DNA from: Pleodorina starrii | Lineage: Eukaryota; Chlorophyta; Chlorophyceae; Chlamydomonadales; Volvocaceae | Length of the DNA stretch: 64,000 nucleotides | Direction: 5' to 3' | Assembly: GCA_030267565.1 (NCBI GenBank) | Contig: BRXU01000074.1 | Coordinates: forward strand, 1 to 64,000 | Part shown: positions 18,361-45,100 of the stretch, piece after piece | Layout: each line of letters starts with the position of its first letter | Position numbering within the stretch: position 1 is the first letter of the stretch | Notes under the pieces: model-generated | Database searches by the model: none | Told to the model about the DNA's origin: nothing | The model's input: the letters and a program-made list of their open reading frames with translations, nothing else | Program-made: the position numbers and the translations under genes

Positions 18361-18366
18361 AGTTGA

Positions 18367-19896: not shown

Positions 19897-20127
19897 AATA
19901 TTAAGCAACATGCCTTGGCATTACGTGTGTGATTGAGCGATCAAGCCAGATAGAACTCGCTCATTTTGGCAAGGGTGGGTTTCACAAGGGTCCACTTGCC
20001 GTTTCCCGTGGTCCGTGCACAGTCACGTATGCCAGGTATTTCGCGTGGTCTTTTCCCGTGGTCCAGGCATGTGCTTGTTTTTCGCATAGGGACATGTCCC
20101 GCGAACGGTCGCAAGCAGCACCAGGCG

Positions 20128-20375: not shown

Positions 20376-20391
20376 GTTAGGGAGCCGCAAA

Positions 20392-24730: not shown

Positions 24731-26602
24731 CTATTTGGACTGGTACTTCTGGAAAACGGCCTGCAACTCCGCCTGCAGCTGGGCGGCGTCCCCCTTCTTG
24801 CGGCCGCCGTGCGCGTCACGCTTCTTGGGCTTTCCGCCGTGGTTGCCGCGCTTGTTGCCGCCCTTGCCCTGGGATGGCCGGTTGTTGCCACCACCGCCGC
24901 CACCGTTGTTCTTGTGGATGCCACCCTTCACGGACAAGCGGGGCGGATCAGAGTGGGCAGCGTTCAGGTCAGCGGATTTGGTGGTGGTGTACTTGCTTTC
25001 CGCGAGTGCCACCCCCAGAGTGTACTTGATGAGGGCCTCGACATCAGTCCAAGGTGCACCAGACACTGGCTGGAAATCCACTTTTTTCCTGAGCGCGGGT
25101 TGCAGGCCCATTTTGAACCAAGAAATGCGGTCGTACATGCTCATTTCGCCCACGTGTTGCATCACGAGGCGGTACGAAGCGACATATGCCTGGATGGTGC
25201 TGGTCTGCTTAACTTCTCCGTTATGCAGGCGCTTGCGTGCGTCTTCCGGTGTGTCACGGTACGGGTGATCCCACTGAATGAGGAAATCGGTGCGCAACTC
25301 TTCGACAGTGGGGTTGCGTCCCTTTGCGCGCCAGTCGCGCATGTACACCATGCACCACTGCTGCGCGTCACCCGCTAGGTGGAAGATGAAGTGTGTCACC
25401 GGGTCGACACCACGCATCACCAAGTACGTCACCAGGACATCGAACCAGGTCCGCACACACGTGATGTGTTTGTCCATGACCCCCGTGAAATGCTTGAAGG
25501 GAATGCGGTCCTCACGTGTGGGGCCCGATGGCGCGGCCGTCCCTGCCGTGGGTGTTGGGATAGGAGGTGGCGGTGGCACCAAGCCCGTGTGTGGATGTGG
25601 CACCACGCCCTCCTGCCCCGCTGCAAGGGAACCCTGGCCCTGGGTGTGTTCGACTCCTCCCACACTAGGTCGCAGTGGTTCCGGGTTGCTTACCCCGGCC
25701 TGGTTGAGGATGGGCGCCAGGAAGTCTGGCGTCGGTCGGCTGAGCTTCCACTCAGCAATGCCCTCGTACAGGCGCTTCAGCTCAGGCGTCGTCAGGAGGG
25801 GATGACTCCCCTTGGCCAGCTCGTGGTTTATGAACATGGCCGCCGAGTTGGTGAGGCCCGGCGCCTCGAAGCAGCAGACGTACTTCTGTACAAAAGGCTG
25901 GTGCGCCCACGCGTGAAGGTGCTCCTTCAGGGGCTGCTCCCGGTCGGCCGCTGAGGTACCCGCCATTCCGGCGAGACCGGCCGCACCCGCCAGCGCATCA
26001 GCGAAGGTGCGCTGAGTCGGCTGCTGCTGGCCCTCCGGCGTCTTCGCGAAGCGGACGGTGGGCGACTCGCGCCGAGCCGCGTGCTGCACGCCAAAAGCCG
26101 GCAGCTCCTCCTTCTGCACCTGGCCGTCTTCCATTTCCGCGTCGTCCTCATCGGAGCTGGAGCCGGCGTCCTCGGTGGCCGCCCGCTTGGCGCCGGCTTG
26201 CGCTTGCGCTACGACCGCGATTGCGGCAGCCGCAGCATCCGCGGCTTGCTGCCTCGCGATGTGGAGTTCCGACTTCGTGTTGTTATGCTCCTCCTGCAGC
26301 TGAGCAAGCTTTTGCTGCATTAGGTTTTGCTGTTGCAGCAACTGCTCAACCTGCTGCTGCGTTATGGGAGGCGTGTTGGACTCCATTTGCTTAGCAGACA
26401 AGGAAGTCTCCAGAGCGTCGACGCGCTCCTGCGCTTCCTCTGCAGTGCTCGGAAGGGAGTCGATGCCAACGGCCGTCGCCGCGTCACGCAGCTGCGCAGC
26501 CGTGAGGCCCTTCGTCTGTGGAGGGGCCACATCATTAAGAACGGCAGTTTGTTGAATGATCTGGCGCCAGAGTTTTTTGAGGTTTGTGCTGATTTTAGCC
26601 AT
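24731..26602 (-). CDS. Chromovirus Gag
   Basis: 623 codons from an ATG at 26600-26602 to TAG 24731-24733. Residues 55-125 are Gln/Leu/Glu-rich with coiled-coil character (QQQVEQLLQQQNLMQQKLAQ), followed by an Ala-rich and acidic linker. The retrotransposon Gag core is at about 365-535 (HFTGVMDKHI, HLAGDAQQW, DTPEDARKRL, SMYDRISWFKMGL). There is no CCHC knuckle; instead a Gly/Lys/Arg/Asn-rich tail at 559-604 probably binds RNA. Proline-rich stretches lie around 340-360. The protein should assemble the particle that packages element RNA. The TAG is followed in the same frame by the protease ORF with no overlap, so Gag-Pol by stop-codon read-through is possible. Confidence 0.88.
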   Translation of the reverse strand: MAKISTNLKKLWRQIIQQTAVLNDVAPPQTKGLTAAQLRDAATAVGIDSLPSTAEEAQERVDALETSLSAKQMESNTPPITQQQVEQLLQQQNLMQQKLAQLQEEHNNTKSELHIARQQAADAAAAAIAVVAQAQAGAKRAATEDAGSSSDEDDAEMEDGQVQKEELPAFGVQHAARRESPTVRFAKTPEGQQQPTQRTFADALAGAAGLAGMAGTSAADREQPLKEHLHAWAHQPFVQKYVCCFEAPGLTNSAAMFINHELAKGSHPLLTTPELKRLYEGIAEWKLSRPTPDFLAPILNQAGVSNPEPLRPSVGGVEHTQGQGSLAAGQEGVVPHPHTGLVPPPPPIPTPTAGTAAPSGPTREDRIPFKHFTGVMDKHITCVRTWFDVLVTYLVMRGVDPVTHFIFHLAGDAQQWCMVYMRDWRAKGRNPTVEELRTDFLIQWDHPYRDTPEDARKRLHNGEVKQTSTIQAYVASYRLVMQHVGEMSMYDRISWFKMGLQPALRKKVDFQPVSGAPWTDVEALIKYTLGVALAESKYTTTKSADLNAAHSDPPRLSVKGGIHKNNGGGGGGNNRPSQGKGGNKRGNHGGKPKKRDAHGGRKKGDAAQLQAELQAVFQKYQSK

Positions 26603-26705
26603 GATGGCCGCGGTCTAGACGACGCGGAAGGTCGAAGCAAGATCGCAAAATCAGACAGATAACAATACTCTATAGCTTTTATGTTAGCTATATGGCGCGA
26701 TAAAA

Positions 26706-27008
26706 GCGACCGTCGCTAGAAGTGCTTTACGAGTCGCTGATGCGGCGGCGAGGAAGCAAAGCTTCTCAGCCAACGTCGCAAAATGCGCCGTTATAAAGGC
26801 AGCCGTAAATGCGTAGAAGCCGAGGCTTCGTAGCAGGCACCAGGCGCGGCTCACGAAGAGCACAGGCGCAGCTCACAAGGAGCGCAGCCGGGGCGCAGCT
26901 CGCGAAGAGCGCAGCCCAAGGCGCAGCTACTCGGGTAGCAAGCTTCCAAAGGAAGCGTAGCTACAAGTGGCAGGGCCACTTGCCGCCGAAGCGGGAAGCG
27001 AAGCTTCC
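26706..27008 (-). other. Hairpin-rich 5' leader of the chromovirus
   Basis: Between the Gag ATG and the primer-binding site lies a ladder of at least nine short perfect hairpins, including 26706-26716 (GCGAC/GTCGC), 26753-26765 (GAAGC/GCTTC), 26849-26861, 26871-26883 and 26898-26910 (each GCTC/GAGC with a 5-nt loop), 26926-26939, 26942-26956, 26965-26981 (AAGTGGC/GCCACTT, 3-nt loop) and 26994-27008. No convincing gene is present. It is the packaging and translation leader by position. Confidence 0.75.
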
Positions 27009-27062
27009 GCTCGGGGCGCCGCCGAGAGCGCAGCCGATCCTACTACTATGAGTCCTTAGTTA

Positions 27063-27075
27063 GAACTCGATACCA
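27063..27075 (-). other. Primer-binding site of the chromovirus
   Basis: On the minus strand TGGTATCGAGTTC begins two bases inside the 5' LTR. TGG pairs with a tRNA CCA end, and TGGTATC equals the start of the initiator-methionine tRNA site used by many LTR elements. The bases after that do not follow the plant initiator consensus, so the tRNA is not certain. Confidence 0.65.
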
Positions 27076-27077
27076 CT

Positions 27078-27431
27078 TGTAAGACTCTACTAGTCTTCCC
27101 AGGATCTTTCTAAGGTAACTCACCGAGGATCGGGTTAGAGTTCGGTTCTTATTATGCGGAAGCGTAGATTGTTTACCGAATAGCGTGTTATAGATAAGAT
27201 ACATATCACAGTAGGTGGTATCAACAGATACCGTGTAAGAACATTGAAGAGTAATTCTCTGTCGTCTCCACGTAGAGCGACGCCTTAATGCGTACTCCAG
27301 ATGCGTACCATTCCGCAGTACAACTGCTAACGGAAAGGTAACAGGTACTTTATTGGCTCGTTCCTCCGCCAGGACGTGAGACCAATATAACACTATTAAA
27401 ATAGCGTTAAGTTCGTGCAAGCAAGCTTACA
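27078..27431 (-). repeat. Chromovirus 5' LTR
   Basis: 354 bp, identical by eye to 14344-14697. It is flanked on the outside by the second CACAC target duplication (27432-27436) and on the inside by the primer-binding site. It should carry the promoter for minus-strand transcription; no particular element was assigned. Confidence 0.95.
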
Positions 27432-27436
27432 CACAC

Positions 27437-27849
27437 CACCCATTCACCCCACAGCCACGGCCTTGGCCTTGAGCTGCTTGCCTTTCACAGCAGCCTTCCC
27501 GTGTTCCCGGCCCCCCTCACCCGTGCAGCAGTCTGCCCACCCGCTCCCCCTGCTGCCCCTCCTCCCCGCCTGCCACGTTCCCTTGCCGGTTGAGACGGGC
27601 CGGCCCCCGTTGGCTCCACCGCCGTCACCTCCTCTACTCCCCGACCGGTCGTGTCCACCATAGCCCCGGTAGCCCCCTCCCCGCCGGCCCCTACAGCAGC
27701 ACCCCCACCACCCGCGGCTCGCGGCAAATAAAATATATATTCGTGAGAAGATTTTGCGAGATGCCTTGGAGTTTTTATTGAAACTTTAAAAATTTGCGAG
27801 GGACCCTTTCGAGTTTTGTTTGACACTTTGCGAGGTCCCAAACAGTTAA
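27437..27849. other. Low-copy flank, possible Gly/Ala-rich minus-strand coding remnant
   Basis: The CT-rich plus strand at 27437-27720 reads on the minus strand as low-complexity Gly/Ala/Arg sequence, with a possible C-terminus rich in Lys/Ala (KAAVKGKQLKAKAVAVG then stop) near 27445-27500 in another frame. This may be the end of an Ala/Lys-rich gene or chance low complexity. From 27720 it becomes AT-rich and carries three TTGCGAG motifs (27754, 27793, 27827), the same motif found at 14138 and 14227 on the other side of the chromovirus. Confidence 0.3.
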
Positions 27850-28173
27850 TTATTTATTCGCAAAAAGATTGCGTCGGTACGGTATTCTGAAAGTCAGCTT
27901 TTCGGTGCCAACCATGATACATACTCGCAAGCATTCACTGGCCTGTCTATCACACACTCTATCTGTGCGCTAGCCTATGCCAGAGCATACCTTGGCTGGG
28001 TGGACACGGCATGGAGCATGGATAACCCCATCCACTACTACCCTATTCCTGCTGCCCATGTTATCCCACATGGTGCTGTACATCCGCTACCTCCCCCACC
28101 CGCTGGTCAATTAATCCTTAAAATAGATACACTGTCAGGAATGGAGGACCTGTTCAGTGAAGTAAGCGAGTGA
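27850..28173 (+). CDS. Possible last exon of an unknown gene
   Basis: An open stretch of 107 codons follows TAA 27847-27849 and ends in TGA 28171-28173. It has no early ATG; the first in-frame ATG is near the middle (MDNPIHYYPIPAAH). The translation has balanced composition, ordinary residue use and no low-complexity bias before a short proline run (HPLPPPPAGQ), and ends GMEDLFSEVSE. It is not recognised. It could be a 3' exon, since AG acceptor sites lie upstream (for example at 27867 and 27893), or a transposon remnant. Confidence 0.3.
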   Translation, partial: LFIRKKIASVRYSESQLFGANHDTYSQAFTGLSITHSICALAYARAYLGWVDTAWSMDNPIHYYPIPAAHVIPHGAVHPLPPPPAGQLILKIDTLSGMEDLFSEVSE

Positions 28174-29987
28174 AGCCATTCCCCAACCCTACCCAGTCGA
28201 ACTTACCATACTGATGGATGGTTAGCAATGAAACCAAAGAGTTCCTGGTTATTGACCGCCAGCCCCGACTGGTAAACCGTGTCCTGCTTGGCGAACGGAG
28301 CGGGCGGGGTAGCCCGCAGCCGCCCGCCGGAGATCCGAGCCAGGCGGCCGCTCGCCACACCCAAGGGTGGCACCATCTGCACAGTGTTGTGGTTGGGGCC
28401 GGTGCCGAGAGGTTAAGGATGCGAAGGGAGACGAGACAAGGAAATCTGCAACGGTGTACAGGAGACACATACACCACCTCACACTACCCCGTTCACAAAA
28501 AACCCGCTTCACACCTGGCCAGTGGGGCCGAGCTGTGGAAGACCGGCGGAGAAGCTCAGATTGAGCAGGGGAAATGCTGAGGCGCCAATCGGTCGAACTG
28601 GCGGCATGGCAGGTACAAACCCTGGGGAACCAGACAAGAACAAGCGTAGAGCGGTTAGCACCTGAGCTAGACCCCGACAGAAAACGCCGGCCCCGAGGAC
28701 AGCTCATCGGGCTGCAGATGGGAACCGGGACCTCGGCACATAAACAAGGTGCGTAGCGGAGTGGCCAAGACTGTGGATGTGCAACACTCACCGAAAAGAG
28801 AGGCCCTGGAGCACCCGGAACACCTGGGAAGAGGCCGCGAGCGGGGCCAAGCTCGGGGGCGCCAAAGGCCCGAAGTTGGCGCCAAGAGCCTGCAACCGAG
28901 CACAAAGTAGGGTCGGTCCAGATTGATAAGGTGCCGACCCGGCCCAGCATGGGCTAACGCACCGGCGGCAGGAGTGGCGACGCCCCGACAGAGAACCCTG
29001 GCCAGCCGCTGGCGGGGAACGGCGACTGCAGCAACACATTAGCGCCGAAGGTCATTAGCAGCCCCGGGGTAAAGCGGTGCCCGATCACCTAAGGGTGTAC
29101 CTGTAGCGGAGACAGATGCGGGAAGCAGAAAAGCACCTGCCAAGGCGGGAACGCCAAAAAACGGGAAAACCTGTGGGACCGACAGGCAACCACCACCCGG
29201 CCGTATGGCCGGATGCGTGAGAGAGAGAGAAACTAGCAGAGTCGGCAGCGGCACGAAACGCAATAGCAGAGACGCGCGCGATCCGATCCAAGCAAAGGGA
29301 GTCGGCCCATCCATGAAATGACATGCGTTACATCCAGGCCAGGCCGCCACCCAGGCCGCCACGCGGGCTGCACCGAACACCGGGTCACACAGACTCTGAG
29401 TAAACGAAGTTAAGGATGTCACGCACCGTTGCTCCGAACACAAGGCTCTGAGCTTATGTGCCAGCTGTGGAGTCCTTGATACGACGGCGGCCCTTCGCAT
29501 CCCAACTGGCACCGCCCTCTCCTGGACATCTCTCTAATGGGTGCGCAAGCGGGTGCACAGTATGACTGTCAAACCACCCGCCACGGTGGTTCCCTACTGT
29601 GAGTAGTGCGACAGCCGCTCCATGGCCGAGCGAAGCGCCACTTCCCTGGCATTTCCTGTTTTCCTCCAAATATGCTCTGTAATACAACGCCAATTGCGCC
29701 ATCAAAAACGTCGGGTCAGTGCAAAAGATAAATAACTCATGGCGTCGAGGAAAGGCAGGCAGACGGAAAGGCAGGAAAACCCGATCGAAGGGCCGCGACC
29801 AGCCGCGACCTACAACTCACTAACCACCACAACGCTAGCTCCAAATATATGTGGTTGAGGGCCATCAGCATCGCTGTTAAACTACTACACGATGCACACT
29901 ATCAATCAGTGCAACCTATCCATCAGCAGGGACTCTACATGCCCAGAGGAATGCATGCTGCACGAAGAAGCGAATTATTTCGTCGTC
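28174..29987. other. Intergenic or decayed sequence, nothing assigned
   Basis: A 1.8-kb GC-rich stretch. Several open frames occur on both strands (the longest on the minus strand is 28249-28950) but their composition is Ser/Arg/Cys/Pro-rich and shows no domain. A TRGYNNARNNG-like box near 28757 has no matching downstream B box, so no tRNA is called. Confidence 0.4.
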
Positions 29988-30439
29988 TTATGCTGTGGCA
30001 TTACAAACAAGGGGTTGGTGTCGGCTTCCTTGAAGCCGGAAAGAGGGCGGGGCCCCGTTCAATCCGTACGGGTTAAGTTGAGTGCGAAGGCGAAAGTGTG
30101 GGCAGTCCTGCTGATATATAGCCAGAGCTTTATCCCCGAAATGCCTGCTTGCGGAGTCGTCAGCAAGGCCTGCCGGCGCCGCACGAATCACGTCATCCCG
30201 CCGGGTGCATGAGCGCATGGATCGAAATACGGCATCATTTCCAAAGCGAGCGGCGAGGGCGTCAAGTGTGAGAGTGTCCTGAAAGTCCTGCTGATAGACA
30301 GCCAGAGCTTTATATCCGAAATGCCTGCGGCTTGAGCAATCCACCCATGTTCAGCATCGCGCTCCGTCTCGGCACTGTGCAACTCTTCCCGCGAGCGCAT
30401 TGGCTTAAGTAACATGACAGTAGACGTGGAGTGTATCAT
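29988..30439 (-). pseudogene. Decayed coding fragment with an internal 45-bp repeat, function unknown
   Basis: On the minus strand two copies of a coding-like segment, RHFGYKALAVYQQD and RHFGDKALAIYQQD, are about 183 bp apart (DNA copies at about 30102-30150 and 30285-30330). The stretch between them reads FQDTLTLDALAARFGNDAVF. A frame change near 30325 leads into SREELHSAETERDAEHGWIAQ upstream. The substitutions between copies include conservative ones (V to I, Y to D), which suggests an old coding duplication. I do not recognise the family; a transposon-derived or host pseudogene is possible. Confidence 0.3.
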
Positions 30440-31475
30440 TCACATATCACGCAGGCTGACTTGCCAATAGAAGGACAGCGGAACTGTTTGCGAGGGTCGC
30501 GACGACGTGCAGTTACCGACGAGAGTGCACAGGCTTCGCTACCGAGGTATCCACCGTATCGTAGAGCAGGCTTGACAACTTTAACATTAGGACAGGACTG
30601 TAGAAGTCCCCTAGGTTGCCGACTGGACTTGTCGGGCGGCCCGCAGAAGAGCGCCGCCGCATCGTGCGTGCATTGGCGGCTTGCCCCTCATGGTTTGCTC
30701 CTTGCAACCTTTGTAATAGTAATATGCGTCAAGACGATCGGACCGGCTAGCAGAGCTGCTGTGGTGTGGTCGCGGGAAGAATGTTCGCAATGCAAACATA
30801 GTTGGTTGCTTGCCGAAACGAAAGATTCATTTCACGCCGTCATGTCAGAATTCCACTTTAAGGAACGATGAATCTTCTGGAATTAATTATAGGCCGAGAG
30901 GTGTTGGTTTGACCTCGGCCTCGGTCCATGCATGGAGACTGCCAAACTGGTTTGTACTCATGCGATGTTGGGTTCCAATAATAAATTTACCGTGCAATAA
31001 AGAATGTAATCTTTTACTTATGCAGCCTTTCCGTTGGCCGAAAGTCTGCACTTGTCCAATTACTTCCATCCCAGATCCCAGAACCCAGACACGGACATGG
31101 GCAATCCTACAGGGCGGGGCCCCCCTGGGCGCTTCGCGCTGGGGCCCCGCCCAAAAAGGTGATAAACAACCCACATAAGCTTCAGCTCATCAAACATAAG
31201 AAGCTGCTCGATATGATCATAATGTAATCTGTAACCTACGAGCGACTTGCTATCTGAAGAGATGTTTGCTTACAGTAAAAGCTTACAGTGGGGTAACGTA
31301 CAAAAAAAGGGGATGCAGTGGACGAAGCAGCCGCCGTACGGGCCGCGCGAGGACGTTCCAAGCTTGATCAAGACGTGCTGAGCGCACCCAAAACCTACTG
31401 AGAAGAGAAGATCATGACGGAAAGTCCGGCACAAAAACTGGCAGTGCGGCGGAGTTAAAATTGTAATTTTCGAAA

Positions 31476-31493
31476 CCTAACCTAACCTAACCT
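31476..31493. repeat. Short CCTAA tract
   Basis: Three CCTAA units and a partial fourth, equal to the C strand of the five-base repeat TTAGG. It is too short to be read as a telomere. Confidence 0.6.
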
Positions 31494-31914
31494 CGCTATC
31501 TGTAAGGATAAAGTCGTAAGATAGTACCTGCACAGAAGGAGTCAGACCTAGGGTTTGTCATCCGCCTGCTGCCCACCTCCGCAAGCGAGTGCCTGCAATA
31601 CGGTGCAACCGAGTGCAACCGAAAGCAACCCCCCGAGCCTCGGACCCCTTTCAAAAACATTGGTGCCGCGAGGCCTACACAGCACCATAACTGAAGCAAA
31701 TTTTATCAAAAAATTTGTCAGCGCACAAGCAATCTATATGTAAAAGATCAATCCACACGCTGCATCCAAGCCTGGCTGGTAGCCGCCCCAGCCCGTTTAA
31801 ATGCCATGCCGGCCAAGCAAGCACCGTCCACACCCATGCTTGACCATGTCCGTTCTTCACATGACTCCGCACTTCAGCCCGAGCGTTCAGCATGACCAAA
31901 CGCTCACTTTGCAT

Positions 31915-31955
31915 GGGGTGAGGGCTGGTGAGGGCTGGTGAGGGCTGGTGAGGGC
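31915..31955. repeat. 10-bp tandem repeat, about four copies
   Basis: AGGGCTGGTG occurs three times exactly from 31921 to 31950, with partial copies on each side. It ends in AGGGCGGCCG directly before the truncated chromovirus fragment. Confidence 0.85.
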
Positions 31956-31960
31956 GGCCG

Positions 31961-33082
31961 CTTACACTCCCCCCCCTTTGAAGCGAACCGTCCCCGGGAG
32001 CAGCGTGCCACTTGTGAAAGTGGAACGTCATAATCTCGCAGGTAACCAATATTAAGCAACATGCCTTGGCATTACGTGTGTGATTGAGCGATCAAGCCAG
32101 ATAGAACTCGCTCATTTTGGCAAGGGTGGGTTTCACAAGGGTCCACTTGCCGTTTCCCGTGGTCCGTGCACAGTCACGTATGCCAGGTATTTCGCGTGGT
32201 CTTTTCCCGTGGTCCAGGCATGTGCTTGTTTTTCGCATAGGGACATGTCCCGCGAACGGTCGCAAGCAGCACCAGGCGTACTTTAGGCGGTGTTAACCGC
32301 TTAATTTCGGTCCTCTGTCACGAGACACGTGACAGGCTGCTGTTGAGGCACGTACGACAATGATAGGTGTACTTTAGGCGGTTGCTTAATTTCCATCCTC
32401 ATTCACGAGACACGTGAAAGATTGTGCGTACGAGTACGGCAACGATAGGCTTACTTTAGGCGGTGGACCGCTGAATTTCGGACCTCATCCATGAGACACA
32501 TGGAAGGTTGCACGTACCGGGGTTGCGTTAGGGAGCCGCAAATCAGCGCATGATCTGTTTGCGTGTGCGCTTGGAGCGCCGGATTTGTTGCGGTGGTTTG
32601 ACCGCGAGGGCGTCCAAGTACTGGTCGACGAGTTCCTCCACGAGGGAGTCCTCCCGGAGGGATTTCTCGGGTTCCCACGAGTTGTGCTCGGGGCCGTAAC
32701 CCTCCCACTTGACCAGGAAGTCGCGAACCGTGTGGTTGCCAACTTTCCGATCACGGTGGTCGATAATAGCTTGCACTGTCCAGTAGGCGTTGCCACCATC
32801 GTCGATGAATTGCGGTGGTGGTGGTTGGTATACGCCTGAACTTCGGTAGGGTTTCAGTAAGGATACGTGAAACACCGGATGTATTTTGTACCCTGGAGGA
32901 AGCGTTAACCGATAGGCGACCTTTCCCACGGTTGCCTCGACCGTGAAAGGGCCTATGAACTTGGGGTAAAGCTTCTTCGCTCCGGGACCTTTGAGCGCAA
33001 TGTTCTTTGTGCTTAACAGAACGGAGTCACCCACGGTGAAGGTTGCATCCTGCCGGGATTTGTCAGCGGCGTTCTTTTGCCT
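31961..33082 (-). mobile_element. Truncated 3' fragment of the same chromovirus, without the DIRS insertion
   Basis: The fragment matches 14692-14776 followed directly by 19896-20931 of the full element: the last six bases of the LTR, polypurine tract, 3' hairpin repeats and the last 163 or so codons of pol, including the chromodomain (32543-33034). The only difference seen is one more C in the polypurine run. At 32041-32047 the intact GGTAACC shows the site before DIRS insertion. The LTR body is missing at the left. At the right the pol sequence stops at 33082 and telomere repeats follow. No functional product is expected. Confidence 0.93.
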
Positions 33083-33101
33083 AAAACCCTAAAACCCTAA
33101 A
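33083..33101. repeat. Interstitial telomere repeat tract (AAAACCCT)n at a fusion point
   Basis: Two perfect AAAACCCT units and AAA lie between the broken chromovirus and satellite array B. This equals CCCTAAAA, the C strand of the Chlamydomonas-type TTTTAGGG telomere, oriented as the left end of a chromosome whose interior is to the right. CCT is shared with the chromovirus end and CCTAAA with the satellite unit, so both junctions have microhomology. Confidence 0.75.
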
Positions 33102-36100
33102 CAGGCATGTGGGGCCAGCCAAGTTACAAGTTCCGCCGCCCAGTTGGTTCATTATAATCATATTAATTATTATAACTTATGGCACCGACACCATTCACAT
33201 GGTCCAGCCCTGTAATGGGTCCATCCCTGCCCACACCATGCCAGCAGGCCACCCCCCACCCGCACCCCCACAGGCCGCCCCCCCAAATCCCAACCAAAAC
33301 TCGGAAAGAGTTCAAACTTGATGCACGACAATTTTGTTCATAGTCTCAGCTATCCATCCCCCAAAGAACGGGGTCAAAACTCGAAAGCAATTTTTTAAGT
33401 CGATGACAGGATTTCACGCAAAACCCCCTCTACTATCAGTGCATAGCCCATCTGCACATGGGAAAGCTGTGCCTGGGACTGGGTTGCAGCCAGCAGGGTT
33501 CGATGGGTGTACCCCAGTGGCGGCCGGCCTAAACAGGCATGTGGGGCCAGCCAAGTTACAAGTTCCGCCGCCCAGTTGGTTCATTATAATCATATTAATT
33601 ATTATAACTTATGGCACCGACACCATTCACATGGTCCAGCCCTGTAATGGGTCCATCCCTGCCCACACCATGCCAGCAGGCCACCCCCCACCCGCACCCC
33701 CACAGGCCGCCCCCCCAAATCCCAACCAAAACTCGGAAAGAGTTCAAACTTGATGCACGACAATTTTGTTCATAGTCTCAGCTATCCATCCCCCAAAGAA
33801 CGGGGTCAAAACTCGAAAGCAATTTTTTAAGTCGATGACAGGATTTCACGCAAAACCCCCTCTACTATCAGTGCATAGCCCATCTGCACATGGGAAAGCT
33901 GTGCCTGGGACTGGGTTGCAGCCAGCAGGGTTCGATGGGTGTACCCCAGTGGCGGCCGGCCTAAACAGGCATGTGGGGCCAGCCAAGTTACAAGTTCCGC
34001 CGCCCAGTTGGTTCATTGTAATCATATTAATTATTATAACTTATGGCACCGACACCATTCACATGGTCCAGCCCTGTAATGGGTCCATCCCTGCCCACAC
34101 CATGCCAGCAGGCCACCCCCCACCCGCACCCCCACAGGCCGCCCCCCCAAATCCCAACCAAAACTCGGAAAGAGTTCAAACTTGATGCACGACAATTTTG
34201 TTCATAGTCTCAGCTATCCATCCCCCAAAGAACGGGGTCAAAACTCGAAAGCAATTTTTTAAGTCGATGACAGGATTTCACGCAAAACCCCCTCTACTAT
34301 CAGTGCATAGCCCATCTGCACATGGGAAAGCTGTGCCTGGGACTGGGTTGCAGCCAGCAGGGTTCGATGGGTGTACCCCAGTGGCGGCCGGCCTAAACAG
34401 GCATGTGGGGCCAGCCAAGTTACAAGTTCCGCCGCCCAGTTGGTTCATTATAATCATATTAATTATTATAACTTATGGCACCGACACCATTCACATGGTC
34501 CAGCCCTGTAATGGGTCCATCCCTGCCCACACCATGCCAGCAGGCCACCCCCCACCCGCACCCCCACAGGCCGCCCCCCCAAATCCCAACCAAAACTCGG
34601 AAAGAGTTCAAACTTGATGCACGACAATTTTGTTCATAGTCTCAGCTATCCATCCCCCAAAGAACGGGGTCAAAACTCGAAAGCAATTTTTTAAGTCGAT
34701 GACAGGATTTCACGCAAAACCCCCTCTACTATCAGTGCATAGCCCATCTGCACATGGGAAAGCTGTGCCTGGGACTGGGTTGCAGCCAGCAGGGTTCGAT
34801 GGGTGTACCCCAGTGGCGGCCGGCCTAAACAGGCATGTGGGGCCAGCCAAGTTACAAGTTCCGCCGCCCAGTTGGTTCATTATAATCATATTAATTATTA
34901 TAACTTATGGCACCGACACCATTCACATGGTCCAGCCCTGTAATGGGTCCATCCCTGCCCACACCATGCCAGCAGGCCACCCCCCACCCGCACCCCCACA
35001 GGCCGCCCCCCCAAATCCCAACCAAAACTCGGAAAGAGTTCAAACTTGATGCACGACAATTTTGTTCATAGTCTCAGCTATCCATCCCCCAAAGAACGGG
35101 GTCAAAACTCGAAAGCAATTTTTTAAGTCGATGACAGGATTTCACGCAAAACCCCCTCTACTATCAGTGCATAGCCCATCTGCACATGGGAAAGCTGTGC
35201 CTGGGACTGGGTTGCAGCCAGCAGGGTTCGATGGGTGTACCCCAGTGGCGGCCGGCCTAAACAGGCATGTGGGGCCAGCCAAGTTACAAGTTCCGCCGCC
35301 CAGTTGGTTCATTATAATCATATTAATTATTATAACTTATGGCACCGACACCATTCACATGGTCCAGCCCTGTAATGGGTCCATCCCTGCCCACACCATG
35401 CCAGCAGGCCACCCCCCACCCGCACCCCCACAGGCCGCCCCCCCAAATCCCAACCAAAACTCGGAAAGAGTTCAAACTTGATGCACGACAATTTTGTTCA
35501 TAGTCTCAGCTATCCATCCCCCAAAGAACGGGGTCAAAACTCGAAAGCAATTTTTTAAGTCGATGACAGGATTTCACGCAAAACCCCCTCTACTATCAGT
35601 GCATAGCCCATCTGCACATGGGAAAGCTGTGCCTGGGACTGGGTTGCAGCCAGCAGGGTTCGATGGGTGTACCCCAGTGGCGGCCGGCCTAAACAGGCAT
35701 GTGGGGCCAGCCAAGTTACAAGTTCCGCCGCCCAGTTGGTTCATTATAATCATATTAATTATTATAACTTATGGCACCGACACCATTCACATGGTCCAGC
35801 CCTGTAATGGGTCCATCCCTGCCCACACCATGCCAGCAGGCCACCCCCCACCCGCACCCCCACAGGCCGCCCCCCCAAATCCCAACCAAAACTCGGAAAG
35901 AGTTCAAACTTGATGCACGACAATTTTGTTCATAGTCTCAGCTATCCATCCCCCAAAGAACGGGGTCAAAACTCGAAAGCAATTTTTTAAGTCGATGACA
36001 GGATTTCACGCAAAACCCCCTCTACTATCAGTGCATAGCCCATCTGCACATGGGAAAGCTGTGCCTGGGACTGGGTTGCAGCCAGCAGGGTTCGATGGGT

Positions 36101-39100
36101 GTACCCCAGTGGCGGCCGGCCTAAACAGGCATGTGGGGCCAGCCAAGTTACAAGTTCCGCCGCCCAGTTGGTTCATTATAATCATATTAATTATTATAAC
36201 TTATGGCACCGACACCATTCACATGGTCCAGCCCTGTAATGGGTCCATCCCTGCCCACACCATGCCAGCAGGCCACCCCCCACCCGCACCCCCACAGGCC
36301 GCCCCCCCAAATCCCAACCAAAACTCGGAAAGAGTTCAAACTTGATGCACGACAATTTTGTTCATAGTCTCAGCTATCCATCCCCCAAAGAACGGGGTCA
36401 AAACTCGAAAGCAATTTTTTAAGTCGATGACAGGATTTCACGCAAAACCCCCTCTACTTTCAGTGCATAGCCCATCTGCACATGGGAAAGCTGTGCCTGG
36501 GACTGGGTTGCAGCCAGCAGGGTTCGATGGGTGTACCCCAGTGGCGGCCGGCCTAAACAGGCATGTGGGGCCAGCCAAGTTACAAGTTCCGCCGCCCAGT
36601 TGGTTCATTATAATCATATTAATTATTATAACTTATGGCACCGACACCATTCACATGGTCCAGCCCTGTAATGGGTCCATCCCTGCCCACACCATGCCAG
36701 CAGGCCACCCCCCACCCGCACCCCCACAGGCCGCCCCCCCAAATCCCAACCAAAACTCGGAAAGAGTTCAAACTTGATGCACGACAATTTTGTTCATAGT
36801 CTCAGCTATCCATCCCCCAAAGAACGGGGTCAAAACTCGAAAGCAATTTTTTAAGTCGATGACAGGATTTCACGCAAAACCCCCTCTACTATCAGTGCAT
36901 AGCCCATCTGCACATGGGAAAGCTGTGCCTGGGACTGGGTTGCAGCCAGCAGGGTTCGATGGGTGTACCCCAGTGGCGGCCGGCCTAAACAGGCATGTGG
37001 GGCCAGCCAAGTTACAAGTTCCGCCGCCCAGTTGGTTCATTATAATCATATTAATTATTATAACTTATGGCACCGACACCATTCACATGGTCCAGCCCTG
37101 TAATGGGTCCATCCCTGCCCACACCATGCCAGCAGGCCACCCCCCACCCGCACCCCCACAGGCCGCCCCCCCAAATCCCAACCAAAACTCGGAAAGAGTT
37201 CAAACTTGATGCACGACAATTTTGTTCATAGTCTCAGCTATCCATCCCCCAAAGAACGGGGTCAAAACTCGAAAGCAATTTTTTAAGTCGATGACAGGAT
37301 TTCACGCAAAACCCCCTCTACTATCAGTGCATAGCCCATCTGCACATGGGAAAGCTGTGCCTGGGACTGGGTTGCAGCCAGCAGGGTTCGATGGGTGTAC
37401 CCCAGTGGCGGCCGGCCTAAACAGGCATGTGGGGCCAGCCAAGTTACAAGTTCCGCCGCCCAGTTGGTTCATTATAATCATATTAATTATTATAACTTAT
37501 GGCACCGACACCATTCACATGGTCCAGCCCTGTAATGGGTCCATCCCTGCCCACACCATGCCAGCAGGCCACCCCCCACCCGCACCCCCACAGGCCGCCC
37601 CCCCAAATCCCAACCAAAACTCGGAAAGAGTTCAAACTTGATGCACGACAATTTTGTTCATAGTCTCAGCTATCCATCCCCCAAAGAACGGGGTCAAAAC
37701 TCGAAAGCAATTTTTTAAGTCGATGACAGGATTTCACGCAAAACCCCCTCTACTATCAGTGCATAGCCCATCTGCACATGGGAAAGCTGTGCCTGGGACT
37801 GGGTTGCAGCCAGCAGGGTTCGATGGGTGTACCCCAGTGGCGGCCGGCCTAAACAGGCATGTGGGGCCAGCCAAGTTACAAGTTCCGCCGCCCAGTTGGT
37901 TCATTATAATCATATTAATTATTATAACTTATGGCACCGACACCATTCACATGGTCCAGCCCTGTAATGGGTCCATCCCTGCCCACACCATGCCAGCAGG
38001 CCACCCCCCACCCGCACCCCCACAGGCCGCCCCCCCAAATCCCAACCAAAACTCGGAAAGAGTTCAAACTTGATGCACGACAATTTTGTTCATAGTCTCA
38101 GCTATCCATCCCCCAAAGAACGGGGTCAAAACTCGAAAGCAATTTTTTAAGTCGATGACAGGATTTCACGCAAAACCCCCTCTACTATCAGTGCATAGCC
38201 CATCTGCACATGGGAAAGCTGTGCCTGGGACTGGGTTGCAGCCAGCAGGGTTCGATGGGTGTACCCCAGTGGCGGCCGGCCTAAACAGGCATGTGGGGCC
38301 AGCCAAGTTACAAGTTCCGCCGCCCAGTTGGTTCATTATAATCATATTAATTATTATAACTTATGGCACCGACACCATTCACATGGTCCAGCCCTGTAAT
38401 GGGTCCATCCCTGCCCACACCATGCCAGCAGGCCACCCCCCACCCGCACCCCCACAGGCCGCCCCCCCAAATCCCAACCAAAACTCGGAAAGAGTTCAAA
38501 CTTGATGCACGACAATTTTGTTCATAGTCTCAGCTATCCATCCCCCAAAGAACGGGGTCAAAACTCGAAAGCAATTTTTTAAGTCGATGACAGGATTTCA
38601 CGCAAAACCCCCTCTACTATCAGTGCATAGCCCATCTGCACATGGGAAAGCTGTGCCTGGGACTGGGTTGCAGCCAGCAGGGTTCGATGGGTGTACCCCA
38701 GTGGCGGCCGGCCTAAACAGGCATGTGGGGCCAGCCAAGTTACAAGTTCCGCCGCCCAGTTGGTTCATTATAATCATATTAATTATTATAACTTATGGCA
38801 CCGACACCATTCACATGGTCCAGCCCTGTAATGGGTCCATCCCTGCCCACACCATGCCAGCAGGCCACCCCCCACCCGCACCCCCACAGGCCGCCCCCCC
38901 AAATCCCAACCAAAACTCGGAAAGAGTTCAAACTTGATGCACGACAATTTTGTTCATAGTCTCAGCTATCCATCCCCCAAAGAACGGGGTCAAAACTCGA
39001 AAGCAATTTTTTAAGTCGATGACAGGATTTCACGCAAAACCCCCTCTACTATCAGTGCATAGCCCATCTGCACATGGGAAAGCTGTGCCTGGGACTGGGT

Positions 39101-42100
39101 TGCAGCCAGCAGGGTTCGATGGGTGTACCCCAGTGGCGGCCGGCCTAAACAGGCATGTGGGGCCAGCCAAGTTACAAGTTCCGCCGCCCAGTTGGTTCAT
39201 TATAATCATATTAATTATTATAACTTATGGCACCGACACCATTCACATGGTCCAGCCCTGTAATGGGTCCATCCCTGCCCACACCATGCCAGCAGGCCAC
39301 CCCCCACCCGCACCCCCACAGGCCGCCCCCCCAAATCCCAACCAAAACTCGGAAAGAGTTCAAACTTGATGCACGACAATTTTGTTCATAGTCTCAGCTA
39401 TCCATCCCCCAAAGAACGGGGTCAAAACTCGAAAGCAATTTTTTAAGTCGATGACAGGATTTCACGCAAAACCCCCTCTACTATCAGTGCATAGCCCATC
39501 TGCACATGGGAAAGCTGTGCCTGGGACTGGGTTGCAGCCAGCAGGGTTCGATGGGTGTACCCCAGTGGCGGCCGGCCTAAACAGGCATGTGGGGCCAGCC
39601 AAGTTACAAGTTCCGCCGCCCAGTTGGTTCATTATAATCATATTAATTATTATAACTTATGGCACCGACACCATTCACATGGTCCAGCCCTGTAATGGGT
39701 CCATCCCTGCCCACACCATGCCAGCAGGCCACCCCCCACCCGCACCCCCACAGGCCGCCCCCCCAAATCCCAACCAAAACTCGGAAAGAGTTCAAACTTG
39801 ATGCACGACAATTTTGTTCATAGTCTCAGCTATCCATCCCCCAAAGAACGGGGTCAAAACTCGAAAGCAATTTTTTAAGTCGATGACAGGATTTCACGCA
39901 AAACCCCCTCTACTATCAGTGCATAGCCCATCTGCACATGGGAAAGCTGTGCCTGGGACTGGGTTGCAGCCAGCAGGGTTCGATGGGTGTACCCCAGTGG
40001 CGGCCGGCCTAAACAGGCATGTGGGGCCAGCCAAGTTACAAGTTCCGCCGCCCAGTTGGTTCATTATAATCATATTAATTATTATAACTTATGGCACCGA
40101 CACCATTCACATGGTCCAGCCCTGTAATGGGTCCATCCCTGCCCACACCATGCCAGCAGGCCACCCCCCACCCGCACCCCCACAGGCCGCCCCCCCAAAT
40201 CCCAACCAAAACTCGGAAAGAGTTCAAACTTGATGCACGACAATTTTGTTCATAGTCTCAGCTATCCATCCCCCAAAGAACGGGGTCAAAACTCGAAAGC
40301 AATTTTTTAAGTCGATGACAGGATTTCACGCAAAACCCCCTCTACTATCAGTGCATAGCCCATCTGCACATGGGAAAGCTGTGCCTGGGACTGGGTTGCA
40401 GCCAGCAGGGTTCGATGGGTGTACCCCAGTGGCGGCCGGCCTAAACAGGCATGTGGGGCCAGCCAAGTTACAAGTTCCGCCGCCCAGTTGGTTCATTATA
40501 ATCATATTAATTATTATAACTTATGGCACCGACACCATTCACATGGTCCAGCCCTGTAATGGGTCCATCCCTGCCCACACCATGCCAGCAGGCCACCCCC
40601 CACCCGCACCCCCACAGGCCGCCCCCCCAAATCCCAACCAAAACTCGGAAAGAGTTCAAACTTGATGCACGACAATTTTGTTCATAGTCTCAGCTATCCA
40701 TCCCCCAAAGAACGGGGTCAAAACTCGAAAGCAATTTTTTAAGTCGATGACAGGATTTCACGCAAAACCCCCTCTACTATCAGTGCATAGCCCATCTGCA
40801 CATGGGAAAGCTGTGCCTGGGACTGGGTTGCAGCCAGCAGGGTTCGATGGGTGTACCCCAGTGGCGGCCGGCCTAAACAGGCATGTGGGGCCAGCCAAGT
40901 TACAAGTTCCGCCGCCCAGTTGGTTCATTATAATCATATTAATTATTATAACTTATGGCACCGACACCATTCACATGGTCCAGCCCTGTAATGGGTCCAT
41001 CCCTGCCCACACCATGCCAGCAGGCCACCCCCCACCCGCACCCCCACAGGCCGCCCCCCCAAATCCCAACCAAAACTCGGAAAGAGTTCAAACTTGATGC
41101 ACGACAATTTTGTTCATAGTCTCAGCTATCCATCCCCCAAAGAACGGGGTCAAAACTCGAAAGCAATTTTTTAAGTCGATGACAGGATTTCACGCAAAAC
41201 CCCCTCTACTATCAGTGCATAGCCCATCTGCACATGGGAAAGCTGTGCCTGGGACTGGGTTGCAGCCAGCAGGGTTCGATGGGTGTACCCCAGTGGCGGC
41301 CGGCCTAAACAGGCATGTGGGGCCAGCCAAGTTACAAGTTCCGCCGCCCAGTTGGTTCATTATAATCATATTAATTATTATAACTTATGGCACCGACACC
41401 ATTCACATGGTCCAGCCCTGTAATGGGTCCATCCCTGCCCACACCATGCCAGCAGGCCACCCCCCACCCGCACCCCCACAGGCCGCCCCCCCAAATCCCA
41501 ACCAAAACTCGGAAAGAGTTCAAACTTGATGCACGACAATTTTGTTCATAGTCTCAGCTATCCATCCCCCAAAGAACGGGGTCAAAACTCGAAAGCAATT
41601 TTTTAAGTCGATGACAGGATTTCACGCAAAACCCCCTCTACTATCAGTGCATAGCCCATCTGCACATGGGAAAGCTGTGCCTGGGACTGGGTTGCAGCCA
41701 GCAGGGTTCGATGGGTGTACCCCAGTGGCGGCCGGCCTAAACAGGCATGTGGGGCCAGCCAAGTTACAAGTTCCGCCGCCCAGTTGGTTCATTATAATCA
41801 TATTAATTATTATAACTTATGGCACCGACACCATTCACATGGTCCAGCCCTGTAATGGGTCCATCCCTGCCCACACCATGCCAGCAGGCCACCCCCCACC
41901 CGCACCCCCACAGGCCGCCCCCCCAAATCCCAACCAAAACTCGGAAAGAGTTCAAACTTGATGCACGACAATTTTGTTCATAGTCTCAGCTATCCATCCC
42001 CCAAAGAACGGGGTCAAAACTCGAAAGCAATTTTTTAAGTCGATGACAGGATTTCACGCAAAACCCCCTCTACTATCAGTGCATAGCCCATCTGCACATG

Positions 42101-45100
42101 GGAAAGCTGTGCCTGGGACTGGGTTGCAGCCAGCAGGGTTCGATGGGTGTACCCCAGTGGCGGCCGGCCTAAACAGGCATGTGGGGCCAGCCAAGTTACA
42201 AGTTCCGCCGCCCAGTTGGTTCATTATAATCATATTAATTATTATAACTTATGGCACCGACACCATTCACATGGTCCAGCCCTGTAATGGGTCCATCCCT
42301 GCCCACACCATGCCAGCAGGCCACCCCCCACCCGCACCCCCACAGGCCGCCCCCCCAAATCCCAACCAAAACTCGGAAAGAGTTCAAACTTGATGCACGA
42401 CAATTTTGTTCATAGTCTCAGCTATCCATCCCCCAAAGAACGGGGTCAAAACTCGAAAGCAATTTTTTAAGTCGATGACAGGATTTCACGCAAAACCCCC
42501 TCTACTATCAGTGCATAGCCCATCTGCACATGGGAAAGCTGTGCCTGGGACTGGGTTGCAGCCAGCAGGGTTCGATGGGTGTACCCCAGTGGCGGCCGGC
42601 CTAAACAGGCATGTGGGGCCAGCCAAGTTACAAGTTCCGCCGCCCAGTTGGTTCATTATAATCATATTAATTATTATAACTTATGGCACCGACACCATTC
42701 ACATGGTCCAGCCCTGTAATGGGTCCATCCCTGCCCACACCATGCCAGCAGGCCACCCCCCACCCGCACCCCCACAGGCCGCCCCCCCAAATCCCAACCA
42801 AAACTCGGAAAGAGTTCAAACTTGATGCACGACAATTTTGTTCATAGTCTCAGCTATCCATCCCCCAAAGAACGGGGTCAAAACTCGAAAGCAATTTTTT
42901 AAGTCGATGACAGGATTTCACGCAAAACCCCCTCTACTATCAGTGCATAGCCCATCTGCACATGGGAAAGCTGTGCCTGGGACTGGGTTGCAGCCAGCAG
43001 GGTTCGATGGGTGTACCCCAGTGGCGGCCGGCCTAAACAGGCATGTGGGGCCAGCCAAGTTACAAGTTCCGCCGCCCAGTTGGTTCATTATAATCATATT
43101 AATTATTATAACTTATGGCACCGACACCATTCACATGGTCCAGCCCTGTAATGGGTCCATCCCTGCCCACACCATGCCAGCAGGCCACCCCCCACCCGCA
43201 CCCCCACAGGCCGCCCCCCCAAATCCCAACCAAAACTCGGAAAGAGTTCAAACTTGATGCACGACAATTTTGTTCATAGTCTCAGCTATCCATCCCCCAA
43301 AGAACGGGGTCAAAACTCGAAAGCAATTTTTTAAGTCGATGACAGGATTTCACGCAAGGGGGGGGGGGGGGGGGGGGCATAGCCCATCTGCACATGGGAA
43401 AGCTGTGCCTGGGACTGGGTTGCAGCCAGCAGGGTTCGATGGGTGTACCCCAGTGGCGGCCGGCCTAAACAGGCATGTGGGGCCAGCCAAGTTACAAGTT
43501 CCGCCGCCCAGTTGGTTCATTATAATCATATTAATTATTATAACTTATGGCACCGACACCATTCACATGGTCCAGCCCTGTAATGGGTCCATCCCTGCCC
43601 ACACCATGCCAGCAGGCCACCCCCCACCCGCACCCCCACAGGCCGCCCCCCCAAATCCCAACCAAAACTCGGAAAGAGTTCAAACTTGATGCACGACAAT
43701 TTTGTTCATAGTCTCAGCTATCCATCCCCCAAAGAACGGGGTCAAAACTCGAAAGCAATTTTTTAAGTCGATGACAGGATTTCACGCAAAACCCCCTCTA
43801 CTATCAGTGCATAGCCCATCTGCACATGGGAAAGCTGTGCCTGGGACTGGGTTGCAGCCAGCAGGGTTCGATGGGTGTACCCCAGTGGCGGCCGGCCTAA
43901 ACAGGCATGTGGGGCCAGCCAAGTTACAAGTTCCGCCGCCCAGTTGGTTCATTATAATCATATTAATTATTATAACTTATGGCACCGACACCATTCACAT
44001 GGTCCAGCCCTGTAATGGGTCCATCCCTGCCCACACCATGCCAGCAGGCCACCCCCCACCCGCACCCCCACAGGCCGCCCCCCCAAATCCCAACCAAAAC
44101 TCGGAAAGAGTTCAAACTTGATGCACGACAATTTTGTTCATAGTCTCAGCTATCCATCCCCCAAAGAACGGGGTCAAAACTCGAAAGCAATTTTTAACGT
44201 CGATGACAGGATTTCACGCAAAACCCCCTCTACTATCAGTGCATAGCCCATCTGCACATGGGAAAGCTGTGCCTGGGACTGGGTTGCAGCCAGCAGGGTT
44301 CGATGGGTGTACCCCAGTGGCGGCCGGCCTAAACAGGCATGTGGGGCCAGCCAAGTTACAAGTTCCGCCGCCCAGTTGGTTCATTATAATCATATTAATT
44401 ATTATAACTTATGGCACCGACACCATTCACATGGTCCAGCCCTGTAATGGGTCCATCCCTGCCCACACCATGCCAGCAGGCCACCCCCCACCCGCACCCC
44501 CACAGGCCGCCCCCCCAAATCCCAACCAAAACTCGGAAAGAGTTCAAACTTGATGCACGACAATTTTGTTCATAGTCTCAGCTATCCATCCCCCAAAGAA
44601 CGGGGTCAAAACTCGAAAGCAATTTTTTAAGTCGATGACAGGATTTCACGCAAAACCCCCTCTACTATCAGTGCATAGCCCATCTGCACATGGGAAAGCT
44701 GTGCCTGGGACTGGGTTGCAGCCAGCAGGGTTCGATGGGTGTACCCCAGTGGCGGCCGGCCTAAACAGGCATGTGGGGCCAGCCAAGTTACAAGTTCCGC
44801 CGCCCAGTTGGTTCATTATAATCATATTAATTATTATAACTTATGGCACCGACACCATTCACATGGTCCAGCCCTGTAATGGGTCCATCCCTGCCCACAC
44901 CATGCCAGCAGGCCACCCCCCACCCGCACCCCCACAGGCCGCCCCCCCAAATCCCAACCAAAACTCGGAAAGAGTTCAAACTTGATGCACGACAATTTTG
45001 TTCATAGTCTCAGCTATCCATCCCCCAAAGAACGGGGTCAAAACTCGAAAGCAATTTTTTAAGTCGATGACAGGATTTCACGCAAAACCCCCTCTACTAT

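What the first reader, a model, noticed from the sequence alone, without database searches (positions are those of the whole stretch)
33079..33110. Telomere repeat caught between a broken chromovirus and a subtelomeric satellite
A chromovirus fragment stops mid-gene at 33082, is followed by about 2.4 telomere repeats of the TTTTAGGG type in left-end orientation, then by the 432-bp array. Both junctions have microhomology (CCT, CCTAAA). The order telomere, array, module, unique DNA to the right is that of a chromosome end. This looks like fusion of a worn chromosome end to a broken chromosome, placing two similar subtelomeres head to tail.
Basis: partly seen in the sequence, partly recalled or inferred. 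Interest (0 to 1): 0.75.

Follow-up and report, generated by a model that had tools for sequence, protein, structure and literature searches.

The report
Algal chromosome end duplicated onto itself
In a colonial green alga, the last stretch of a chromosome appears to have been copied and attached in front of its own worn end, and a 22-base scrap of the old telomere still marks the seam; this kind of event is known in human, worm and yeast chromosomes, and here the seam can be read base by base.

Summary
Window 33080-33101 reads CCTAAAACCCTAAAACCCTAAA: 22 bases in exact telomere register, of which only 33083-33095 is not supplied by the chromovirus (CCT) or the 432-bp unit (CCTAAA). The decisive new fact: everything left of the seam back to 11938 is a direct copy (99.943%, 12 substitutions, no gaps in 21,145 bp) of C74:56818-77962 on the same contig. 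So this is a head-to-tail duplication of one chromosome end, not a join of unrelated ends. Of 9 polarised substitutions, 6 are derived in the left copy and 3 in the right, so both copies look like real DNA. Telomere polarity says the array side was the free end. Real telomeres abut the related module on C17 and C33, and a long-unit relative of the array on C49, in the same orientation. Best mechanism: an end with almost no telomere was re-capped by copying, or capturing, the terminal part of the same arm from inside a chromovirus. Rivals: telomerase-made filler at an ordinary repair (short telomere tracts are common here), and an assembly join; no reads could be checked. The genome matches Pleodorina starrii NIES-4479 by contig count and length. 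New member of a known kind (compare human 15q, C. elegans VR).

The parts
1..11933 (+). Subtelomeric 432-bp array of the left (outer) copy, cut by the contig start; 27 of 27 full units checked are identical
11934..11937 (.). TAAA at the array-module boundary of the left copy; looks like a deletion derivative of the right copy's boundary (CATGTG+TAAA+AAGGTCGC versus TTTTTGTGG+AAGGTCGC)
11938..33082 (+). Left copy of the duplicated terminal segment; 12 substitutions, 0 gaps against C74:56818-77962
12145..12657 (+). Subtelomeric module: degenerate telomere repeats (12145-12238) then 22-bp ACCCTAGAACCACAACTGAAAA-type repeats; relatives of the 22-bp repeats abut a real telomere at the C17 start (93% over 147 bp) and near the C33 end (about 79-86%)
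14774..19883 (+). 5.1-kb retroelement (RT, RNase H, Dam-like domain) with identical 237-bp direct repeats at its ends, nested in the chromovirus; in both C74 copies, absent at this place in C76
   Evidence: coordinates from the right copy minus 44880
20392..26602 (-). Coding part of the longer chromovirus copy in the left copy (gag-like, below Pfam's cut-off; protease; RT; RNase H; integrase; SH3; chromodomain)
31960..33082 (-). Broken chromovirus: 3' part only (SH3 and chromodomain, ORF 32543-33034); its counterpart in the right copy runs on past 77962
33080..33082 (.). CCT shared by chromovirus and telomere: 3-bp microhomology at the seam
33083..33095 (.). 13 nt of telomere sequence belonging to neither flank (AAAACCCTAAAAC)
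33096..33101 (.). CCTAAA, part of the 432-bp unit and in telomere register (TTTAGG on the other strand): likely telomerase priming site
33096..49379 (+). 432-bp array of the right (inner, once terminal) copy; 37 full units checked, 33 identical; consensus identical to the left array
49380..56817 (+). Mixed 730-bp units (432 + 298-bp module with telomere-like tail) and 432-bp units; not present in the left copy
56818..64000 (+). Right copy of the duplicated segment (continues to C74:77962 beyond the window)

Best explanation
This is a terminal tandem duplication of one chromosome end. Shown: two direct copies of the same about 21-kb subtelomeric segment, each with a 432-bp array on its left; the outer copy stops inside a chromovirus and is joined through 22 bases of telomere sequence to the array of the inner copy; the telomere polarity is that of an end lying on the array side. 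Inferred: the inner copy was once the end of the chromosome. A break in its 432-bp array was primed by telomerase at CCTAAA, or its telomere wore down, leaving about 2.5 repeats. That uncapped end was then rescued either by its 3' G-strand (...TTTTAGG) priming on AGG in the chromovirus of a sister or homologous copy of the same arm and copying out to that arm's tip (microhomology-mediated break-induced replication; favoured), or by ligation to a terminal fragment broken in the chromovirus. Either route gives the chromosome a new subtelomere and telomere and traps the old telomere stub inside. Inferred order of events: internal 12.15-kb duplication, then nested retroelement insertion, then terminal duplication, then a few substitutions and array reshuffling.
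For: Left 11938-33082 versus C74:56818-77962: 99.943%, 12 substitutions, 0 gaps. The intact chromovirus continues TTTTGCCTGTCC, the seam reads TTTTGCCTAAAACCC. The seam string occurs once in the genome. CCTAAA start: 3 of 432 array offsets match as well or better. Polarity: AACCCTA 89 on + against 3 on - in the window, most of them in repeated units and so not independent. Of six contigs with a long telomere, C17 and C33 have relatives of the 22-bp module directly beside it, and C49 has, 15 bp from its telomere, 220 bp that are 98.2% identical to part of the 1.24-kb C48 unit, the long relative of the 432-bp unit; all in the same orientation. Homologues of 12660-14700 also lie within a few kb of the C49 (81%) and C33 (69%) telomeres, same orientation. 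Both copies are real: 9 of 12 substitutions polarised with C76, 6 derived left and 3 derived right; 3 not covered. Relative ages: internal 12.15-kb duplication 18 mismatches in an 11,637-bp alignment; nested element with identical 237-bp ends; terminal duplication 12 in 21,145. Precedent: human 15q extended by a 4 times duplication of its own 11-kb terminus including telomere sequence (PMC6226469, passages).
Against: No read evidence. C74 is only 134 kb, begins inside the array and shows no assembled telomere on its left, so 'terminal' is inferred. The left copy is not a plain copy of the present right copy: its array-module boundary differs and it lacks the 730-bp units, so either later reshuffling or a slightly different donor end is needed. 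Four of the six telomere-bearing contigs (C2, C20, C42, C49) show no match to window-type module sequence in the 1.2-2.1 kb held beside the telomere, and none of the six abuts the 432-bp unit itself. Short telomere tracts with abrupt edges are common in this genome (the string GCCTAAAACCCTAAAACC occurs 32 times), so the tract could be repair filler. A 3-bp microhomology occurs by chance at 8.2% of positions examined.
Confidence: 0.6

Rival explanations
1. Ordinary break repair with telomerase-made filler. A tandem duplication arose between a break in the chromovirus on one chromatid and a break in the 432-bp array on another; telomerase added about two repeats to the array end before end-joining. 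The array was never the chromosome tip.
For: Short telomere tracts are frequent in this genome: 1710 two-repeat matches, 27 places in the first 3.59 Mb of C1 (and its listing), 32 copies of the abrupt-edge string of the seam. A review attributes most short interstitial telomeres to insertion during break repair with possible telomerase recruitment (PMC6410037, passage). The CCTAAA priming site fits.
Against: The polarity, the start in register on the array, and the fact that the inner copy is a whole subtelomere in a layout related to real ends (C17, C33, C49) are expected if the array was terminal and need coincidence otherwise. The duplicated block runs up to and into a terminal-type array.
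Confidence: 0.2
2. Assembly join: two near-identical chromosome ends (or the same end twice) were joined by the pipeline or by a chimeric read, and the seam does not exist in cells.
For: The matching assembly was made by merging Flye and NextDenovo contigs with quickmerge and closing gaps with TGS-GapCloser (PMC10256686, passages). Read-level artefacts do exist in it: C42 starts with a 93.5% inverted foldback through a telomere, and the C33 telomere runs into what I recall as SMRTbell adapter sequence. C74 is small and begins in a tandem array.
Against: Those two artefacts sit at contig ends and the one tested (C42) is inverted; this seam is direct and internal. Overlap-based joining needs far more than the 3 shared bases (general knowledge of assemblers). 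The assembled telomeres of C2, C17, C20, C33, C42 and C49 span 421-672 bp, so a chimeric read through a natural end would more likely carry hundreds of bases of telomere than 22. Both copies carry their own derived substitutions and no indels, unlike a duplicated misassembly.
Confidence: 0.17
3. The telomere stub was an older interstitial tract already inside the array, and the duplication used it only by accident.
For: Telomere-like stretches occur at other boundaries of these arrays: degenerate ones in the 730-bp units (49591-57118), and at C76 28682-28694 an exact 13-nt CCTAAAACCCTAA between other sequence and a 432-type unit.
Against: In C74 the other stretches are degenerate and join the unit at a different point (AGTCGATG); the junction of the seam with CAGGCATG is unique in the genome.
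Confidence: 0.03

Closest known systems
Human chromosome end extension at 15q (NA12878; PMC6226469, abstract and passages read)
   Same: The extension is a repeat of the chromosome's own terminal 11 kb and the telomere sequence of the reference end is inside the repeat
   Different: Described as a 4 times duplication, supported by nanopore reads and seen in mother and daughter; here two copies of at least 33 kb, not read-validated, with a base-resolved stub of 22 nt
C. elegans CB4856/DL226 chromosome V right end, short telomere repeats plus TALT1 in tandem (PMC9066243, whole text; PMC4595603, abstract)
   Same: Tandem blocks separated by short telomere repeats, ascribed by the authors to repair of telomere damage
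   Different: There the block is a small internal genomic piece used as a template; here it is the subtelomere itself, cut inside a retrotransposon
Yeast terminal duplications after transient telomere uncapping (PMC13022453, abstract and passages)
   Same: Terminal duplication ascribed to break-induced replication after loss of end protection
   Different: Yeast junctions lie in hundreds to thousands of bp of homology; here 3 bp
Chlamydomonas reinhardtii Sultan subtelomeric repeats (existence: PMC10030371, passages; structure recalled, the primary paper is not held)
   Same: Subtelomeric repeats in a volvocine relative; the C48 units of about 1.24 kb that I looked at include a telomere-like stretch
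   Different: No sequence relation tested; unit sizes 432, 730 and about 1240 bp
Short interstitial telomeric sequences from break repair (PMC6410037, passages)
   Same: A few exact repeats with sharp edges
   Different: Here on the breakpoint of a terminal-segment duplication and in end orientation

Membership tests
Terminal tandem duplication with telomere remnant | Outer block is a direct copy of the inner terminal block | tested here: met
   99.943% over 21,145 bp, direct
Terminal tandem duplication with telomere remnant | Telomere repeats at the seam, G-strand pointing to the chromosome end | tested here: met
   22-nt tract, C-strand on +; end orientation from C17, C33, C49
Terminal tandem duplication with telomere remnant | Outer copy ends in a functional telomere | tested here: inconclusive
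   contig begins inside the 432-bp array
Terminal tandem duplication with telomere remnant | Seam spanned by single molecules | not testable with these tools
   no reads held; raw reads are DRA015329
Head-to-head telomere fusion (human 2q13 type, recalled) | TTTTAGGG run meeting CCCTAAAA run | tested here: not met
   single orientation at the seam
Short interstitial telomere from break repair | Few exact repeats, sharp edges, microhomology | tested here: met
   similar tracts are common in the genome
Sultan-type subtelomeric array | Sequence similarity to C. reinhardtii Sultan units | not tested
   I had no Sultan sequence; the primary paper is not held
TALT-type block | Block copied from an internal genomic template and spread to other ends | tested here: inconclusive
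   C76 carries the same module and segment at about 99.4-99.7% or more, so sharing between contigs occurs; whether C76 is a chromosome end and the direction of copying are unknown (no telomere in its first 4 kb)

The most novel reading that the evidence does not exclude
Subtelomeres in this alga grow outward in layers. Each 432-bp satellite unit carries a telomerase-priming hexamer (CCTAAA), so an end that breaks in the array is quickly re-seeded; an under-capped end then copies the arm's own tip onto itself from any nearby sequence, retrotransposon included. Telomere scraps of rising degeneracy inward (33083 fresh; the degenerate stretch at 57025-57118, beside the module that still abuts a telomere on C17) would record successive former ends, like growth rings.
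Probability: 0.2. Interest if true: 0.72.

Novelty: new member of a known kind. Interest (0 to 1): 0.5.

Why it matters
The terminal tandem duplications with trapped telomere scraps that I found or know of come from yeast survivors, wild worms and human optical maps. If real, this gives a base-resolved natural case in a multicellular volvocine alga, with internal clocks (nested element, older internal duplication, polarised substitutions) that order the event and suggest that it is not a culture accident. It offers a directly testable route by which an end that has lost its telomere is rescued, and a reason why these subtelomeres hold stacked arrays.

Tried and rejected
Rejected: head-to-head telomere fusion (polarity). 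Rejected: telomere healing of the chromovirus end (a right-hand broken end would carry TTTTAGGG on +, the opposite of what is seen). Rejected: homologous unequal exchange as the origin of the seam (only CCT is shared). Rejected: the two copies as one locus assembled twice (derived substitutions on both sides, different array boundaries). Looked at and put aside: C1:5634163-5638726, a 95-96% internal relative of parts of the segment without the chromovirus; the 5.2 kb on its left shows no telomere repeat, so it does not look like a trapped end. Led nowhere: one search's exact-flank polarisation reached 5 of 12 sites and was replaced by the alignment (9 of 12). L085 (C6) was fetched and only its contig length was seen. 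A check of species identity by the HAP2/GCS1 family (PF10699) did not complete. Paper searches for closer precedents returned no paper. No claim is made that nothing is in print: the C. reinhardtii subtelomere and survivor papers and the C. elegans new-subtelomere paper that I know of are not held.
Full report
Where it is. The window is bases 1-64000 of contig C74 (134,094 bp) of a 136,057,477-bp, 95-contig genome. A published assembly has these figures: Pleodorina starrii NIES-4479, bisexual strain, 95 contigs, 136.1 Mbp, BRXU01000001-95, built from PacBio reads with Flye and NextDenovo, merged with quickmerge, gap-filled with TGS-GapCloser; raw reads DRA015329; sister strains BRXT and BRXV (PMC10256686, passages read). 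I did not confirm the identity by a second route; the family search meant for that did not complete. The abstract places the species among haploid organisms (listing).

The seam. The + strand reads ...GGCGTTCTTTTGCCTAAAACCCTAAAACCCTAAACAGGCATG.... Intact chromovirus copies, including the counterpart at C74:77962, read ...TTCTTTTGCCTGTCCTGG, so the element is cut after CCT at 33082. Interior units of the 432-bp array read ...GCCGGCCTAAACAGGCATG, so the array begins in register at CCTAAA, 33096. The 13 bases 33083-33095 belong to neither flank and complete an exact telomere register of 22 bases. The telomere is TTTTAGGG: 20-repeat exact runs lie at or close to one end of contigs C2, C17, C20, C33, C42 and C49 and nowhere else (96 matches; spans 421-672 bp). 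In the 432-bp unit only 3 of 432 offsets (at two sites) begin with 6 or more telomere-matching bases, and the seam uses one of them. On the chromovirus side, 8.2% of positions in the 2.1-kb stretch examined would show 3 or more matching bases.

What lies on both sides. Window 11938-33082 aligns directly and without gaps to C74:56818-77962 with 12 substitutions in 21,145 bp. The seam therefore joins two copies of one subtelomere head to tail. The arrays have the same consensus (0 differences); 27 of 27 full left units and 33 of 37 full right units checked are identical to it. With C76 as outgroup, 9 of the 12 substitutions can be polarised: 6 derived in the left copy (12158, 12159, 12219, 13088, 23542, 24664) and 3 in the right (12227, 20723, 24680); the other 3 (15482, 18544, 30183) lie outside the stretches aligned to C76. 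The two copies also differ at the array-module boundary: the right copy reads TTTTT-GTGG-AAGGTCGC, the left CATGTG-TAAA-AAGGTCGC, as if deleted, and the left lacks the 730-bp units found at 49380-56817. These differences argue that both copies are real, and that the array has reshuffled or that the donor differed slightly from the present right copy.

Which side was the end. Of 92 AACCCTA/TAGGGTT heptamers in the window 89 have the C-strand on +; most lie in repeated units, so they are not independent. Six telomere-bearing contig ends give the yardstick. On C17 and C33 the telomere runs straight into relatives of the window's 22-bp module (93% over 147 bp; about 79-86%). On C49, 15 bp from the telomere, 220 bp are 98.2% identical to part of the 1.24-kb unit of C48, which is the long relative of the 432-bp unit. 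In these three the telomere lies on the side where C74 has its array. C2, C20 and C42 show neither in the 1.2-2.1 kb held, and none of the six abuts the 432-bp unit itself. Homologues of window 12660-14700 also lie within a few kb of the telomeres of C49 (81%) and C33 (69%), in the matching orientation. A right-hand broken chromovirus end healed by telomerase would show TTTTAGGG on +; the opposite is seen. So the array side was the end that carried telomere.

History read from the contig. Inside the right copy there is an older direct duplication of about 12.15 kb, 64768-76387 against 76919-88554, 18 mismatches and 2 gap openings in an 11,637-bp alignment; its boundary near 76,830 shows no telomere repeat. 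A 5.1-kb retroelement with identical 237-bp ends sits in one of its halves, in both terminal copies but not at the same place in C76. By divergence and by content the terminal duplication is younger than both. With a mutation rate near 1e-9 per base per generation (recalled, from Chlamydomonas), about 4,000 generations of culture (assumed) would give about 0.17 differences between the copies, against the 12 seen, or 8 outside the telomere-like stretch; if the outer copy came from the same end, the event predates culture.

Mechanism. An end holding about 2.5 telomere repeats was either nearly worn out or freshly seeded at CCTAAA; the sequence cannot tell these apart. It was re-capped with the terminal at least 33 kb of the same arm. 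Microhomology-primed copying (3' ...TTTTAGG pairing at AGG of the element, then synthesis to the tip) needs one invading end and yields a stable chromosome directly; capture of a broken terminal fragment needs two damaged molecules. I favour the first at about 60:40, as inference.

Against this reading. No read was checked. C74 begins inside an array, so the outer telomere is not seen. Short exact telomere tracts are common in this genome (887+823 two-repeat matches; the seam's own edge string GCCTAAAACCCTAAAACC has 32 places; three of them, in C20, lie in repeats spaced 8609 bp with 0-1 differences over 1183 bp compared). Telomerase filler at an ordinary repair is therefore a serious rival. 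The assembly shows artefacts at two telomeres (C42 foldback; C33 adapter-like sequence), both at contig ends.

Known relatives. Human 15q in NA12878 is extended by a 4 times duplication of its own 11-kb terminus with the telomere sequence included (PMC6226469). The right end of C. elegans chromosome V in CB4856 and DL226 holds tandem short telomere repeats with TALT1, ascribed to telomere damage repair (PMC9066243). Yeast cells surviving telomere uncapping show terminal duplications ascribed to break-induced replication (PMC13022453). The C74 seam is a new member of this kind. It is distinctive in the 3-bp junction in a retrotransposon and in the priming hexamer carried by the satellite unit.

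Changes on checking. The claim that real telomeres share the module is now given as 2 of 6 contigs, with C49 added through the long unit; telomere spans are restated as 421-672 bp; the C76 tract is exact, not degenerate; the C48 hits fall in two stretches.

Noticed in passing
G000:C42:1-2378: Head-to-head telomere runs near the contig start are flanked by a 93.5% inverted repeat with many gaps: it looks like a foldback read artefact rather than a fusion
   Followed up: yes
G000:C33:1177237-1181025: The telomere runs into what looks like SMRTbell adapter sequence (recalled) and the contig goes on for about 3.8 kb, possibly an uncorrected foldback (the rest was not fetched)
   Followed up: partly
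G000:C20:2399786, 2408395, 2417004: Three copies of a telomere tract spaced exactly 8609 bp, flanks nearly identical (0-1 differences in 1183 bp), in right-end orientation on a contig ending in telomere
   Followed up: partly
G000:C76:28682-28694: Exact 13-nt telomere tract CCTAAAACCCTAA between other sequence and a 432-type unit joined at a different point of the unit than in C74: a second possible trapped end
   Followed up: partly
G000:C49, beside the telomere at the contig end (about 516,110-516,350): Real telomere sits 15 bp from sequence 98.2% identical over 220 bp to part of the 1.24-kb unit of C48
   Followed up: yes
G000:C1:3588968-3594355: Repeated interstitial telomere tracts about 0.8-0.9 kb apart, deep inside a 10.3-Mb contig (listing, cut at 100 rows)
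   Followed up: no
G000:C1:5634163-5638726: Internal 95-96% relative of parts of the subtelomeric segment, lacking the chromovirus; no telomere repeat in the 5.2 kb to its left
   Followed up: partly
window 43032-43463: One 432-bp unit has a stretch of about 18 bases replaced by a run of G: likely a sequencing or polishing error
   Followed up: no
C74:64768-76387 and 76919-88554: Older 12.15-kb tandem duplication holding the chromovirus, without telomere at its boundary
   Followed up: yes
G000:C48:471771-495973 and 546910-567278: Hits to 1.24-1.25-kb relatives of the 432-bp unit in two stretches near one end of the contig (capped list); units looked at hold a telomere-like stretch; a 188-bp satellite lies at the contig end and, by eye, the same satellite is in C76
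   Followed up: partly
G000:C74:128095-134094: The other end of the contig stops in a GC-rich minisatellite (GACCCATGGGCCCAGCCTC-like), so C74 is open at both ends
   Followed up: no
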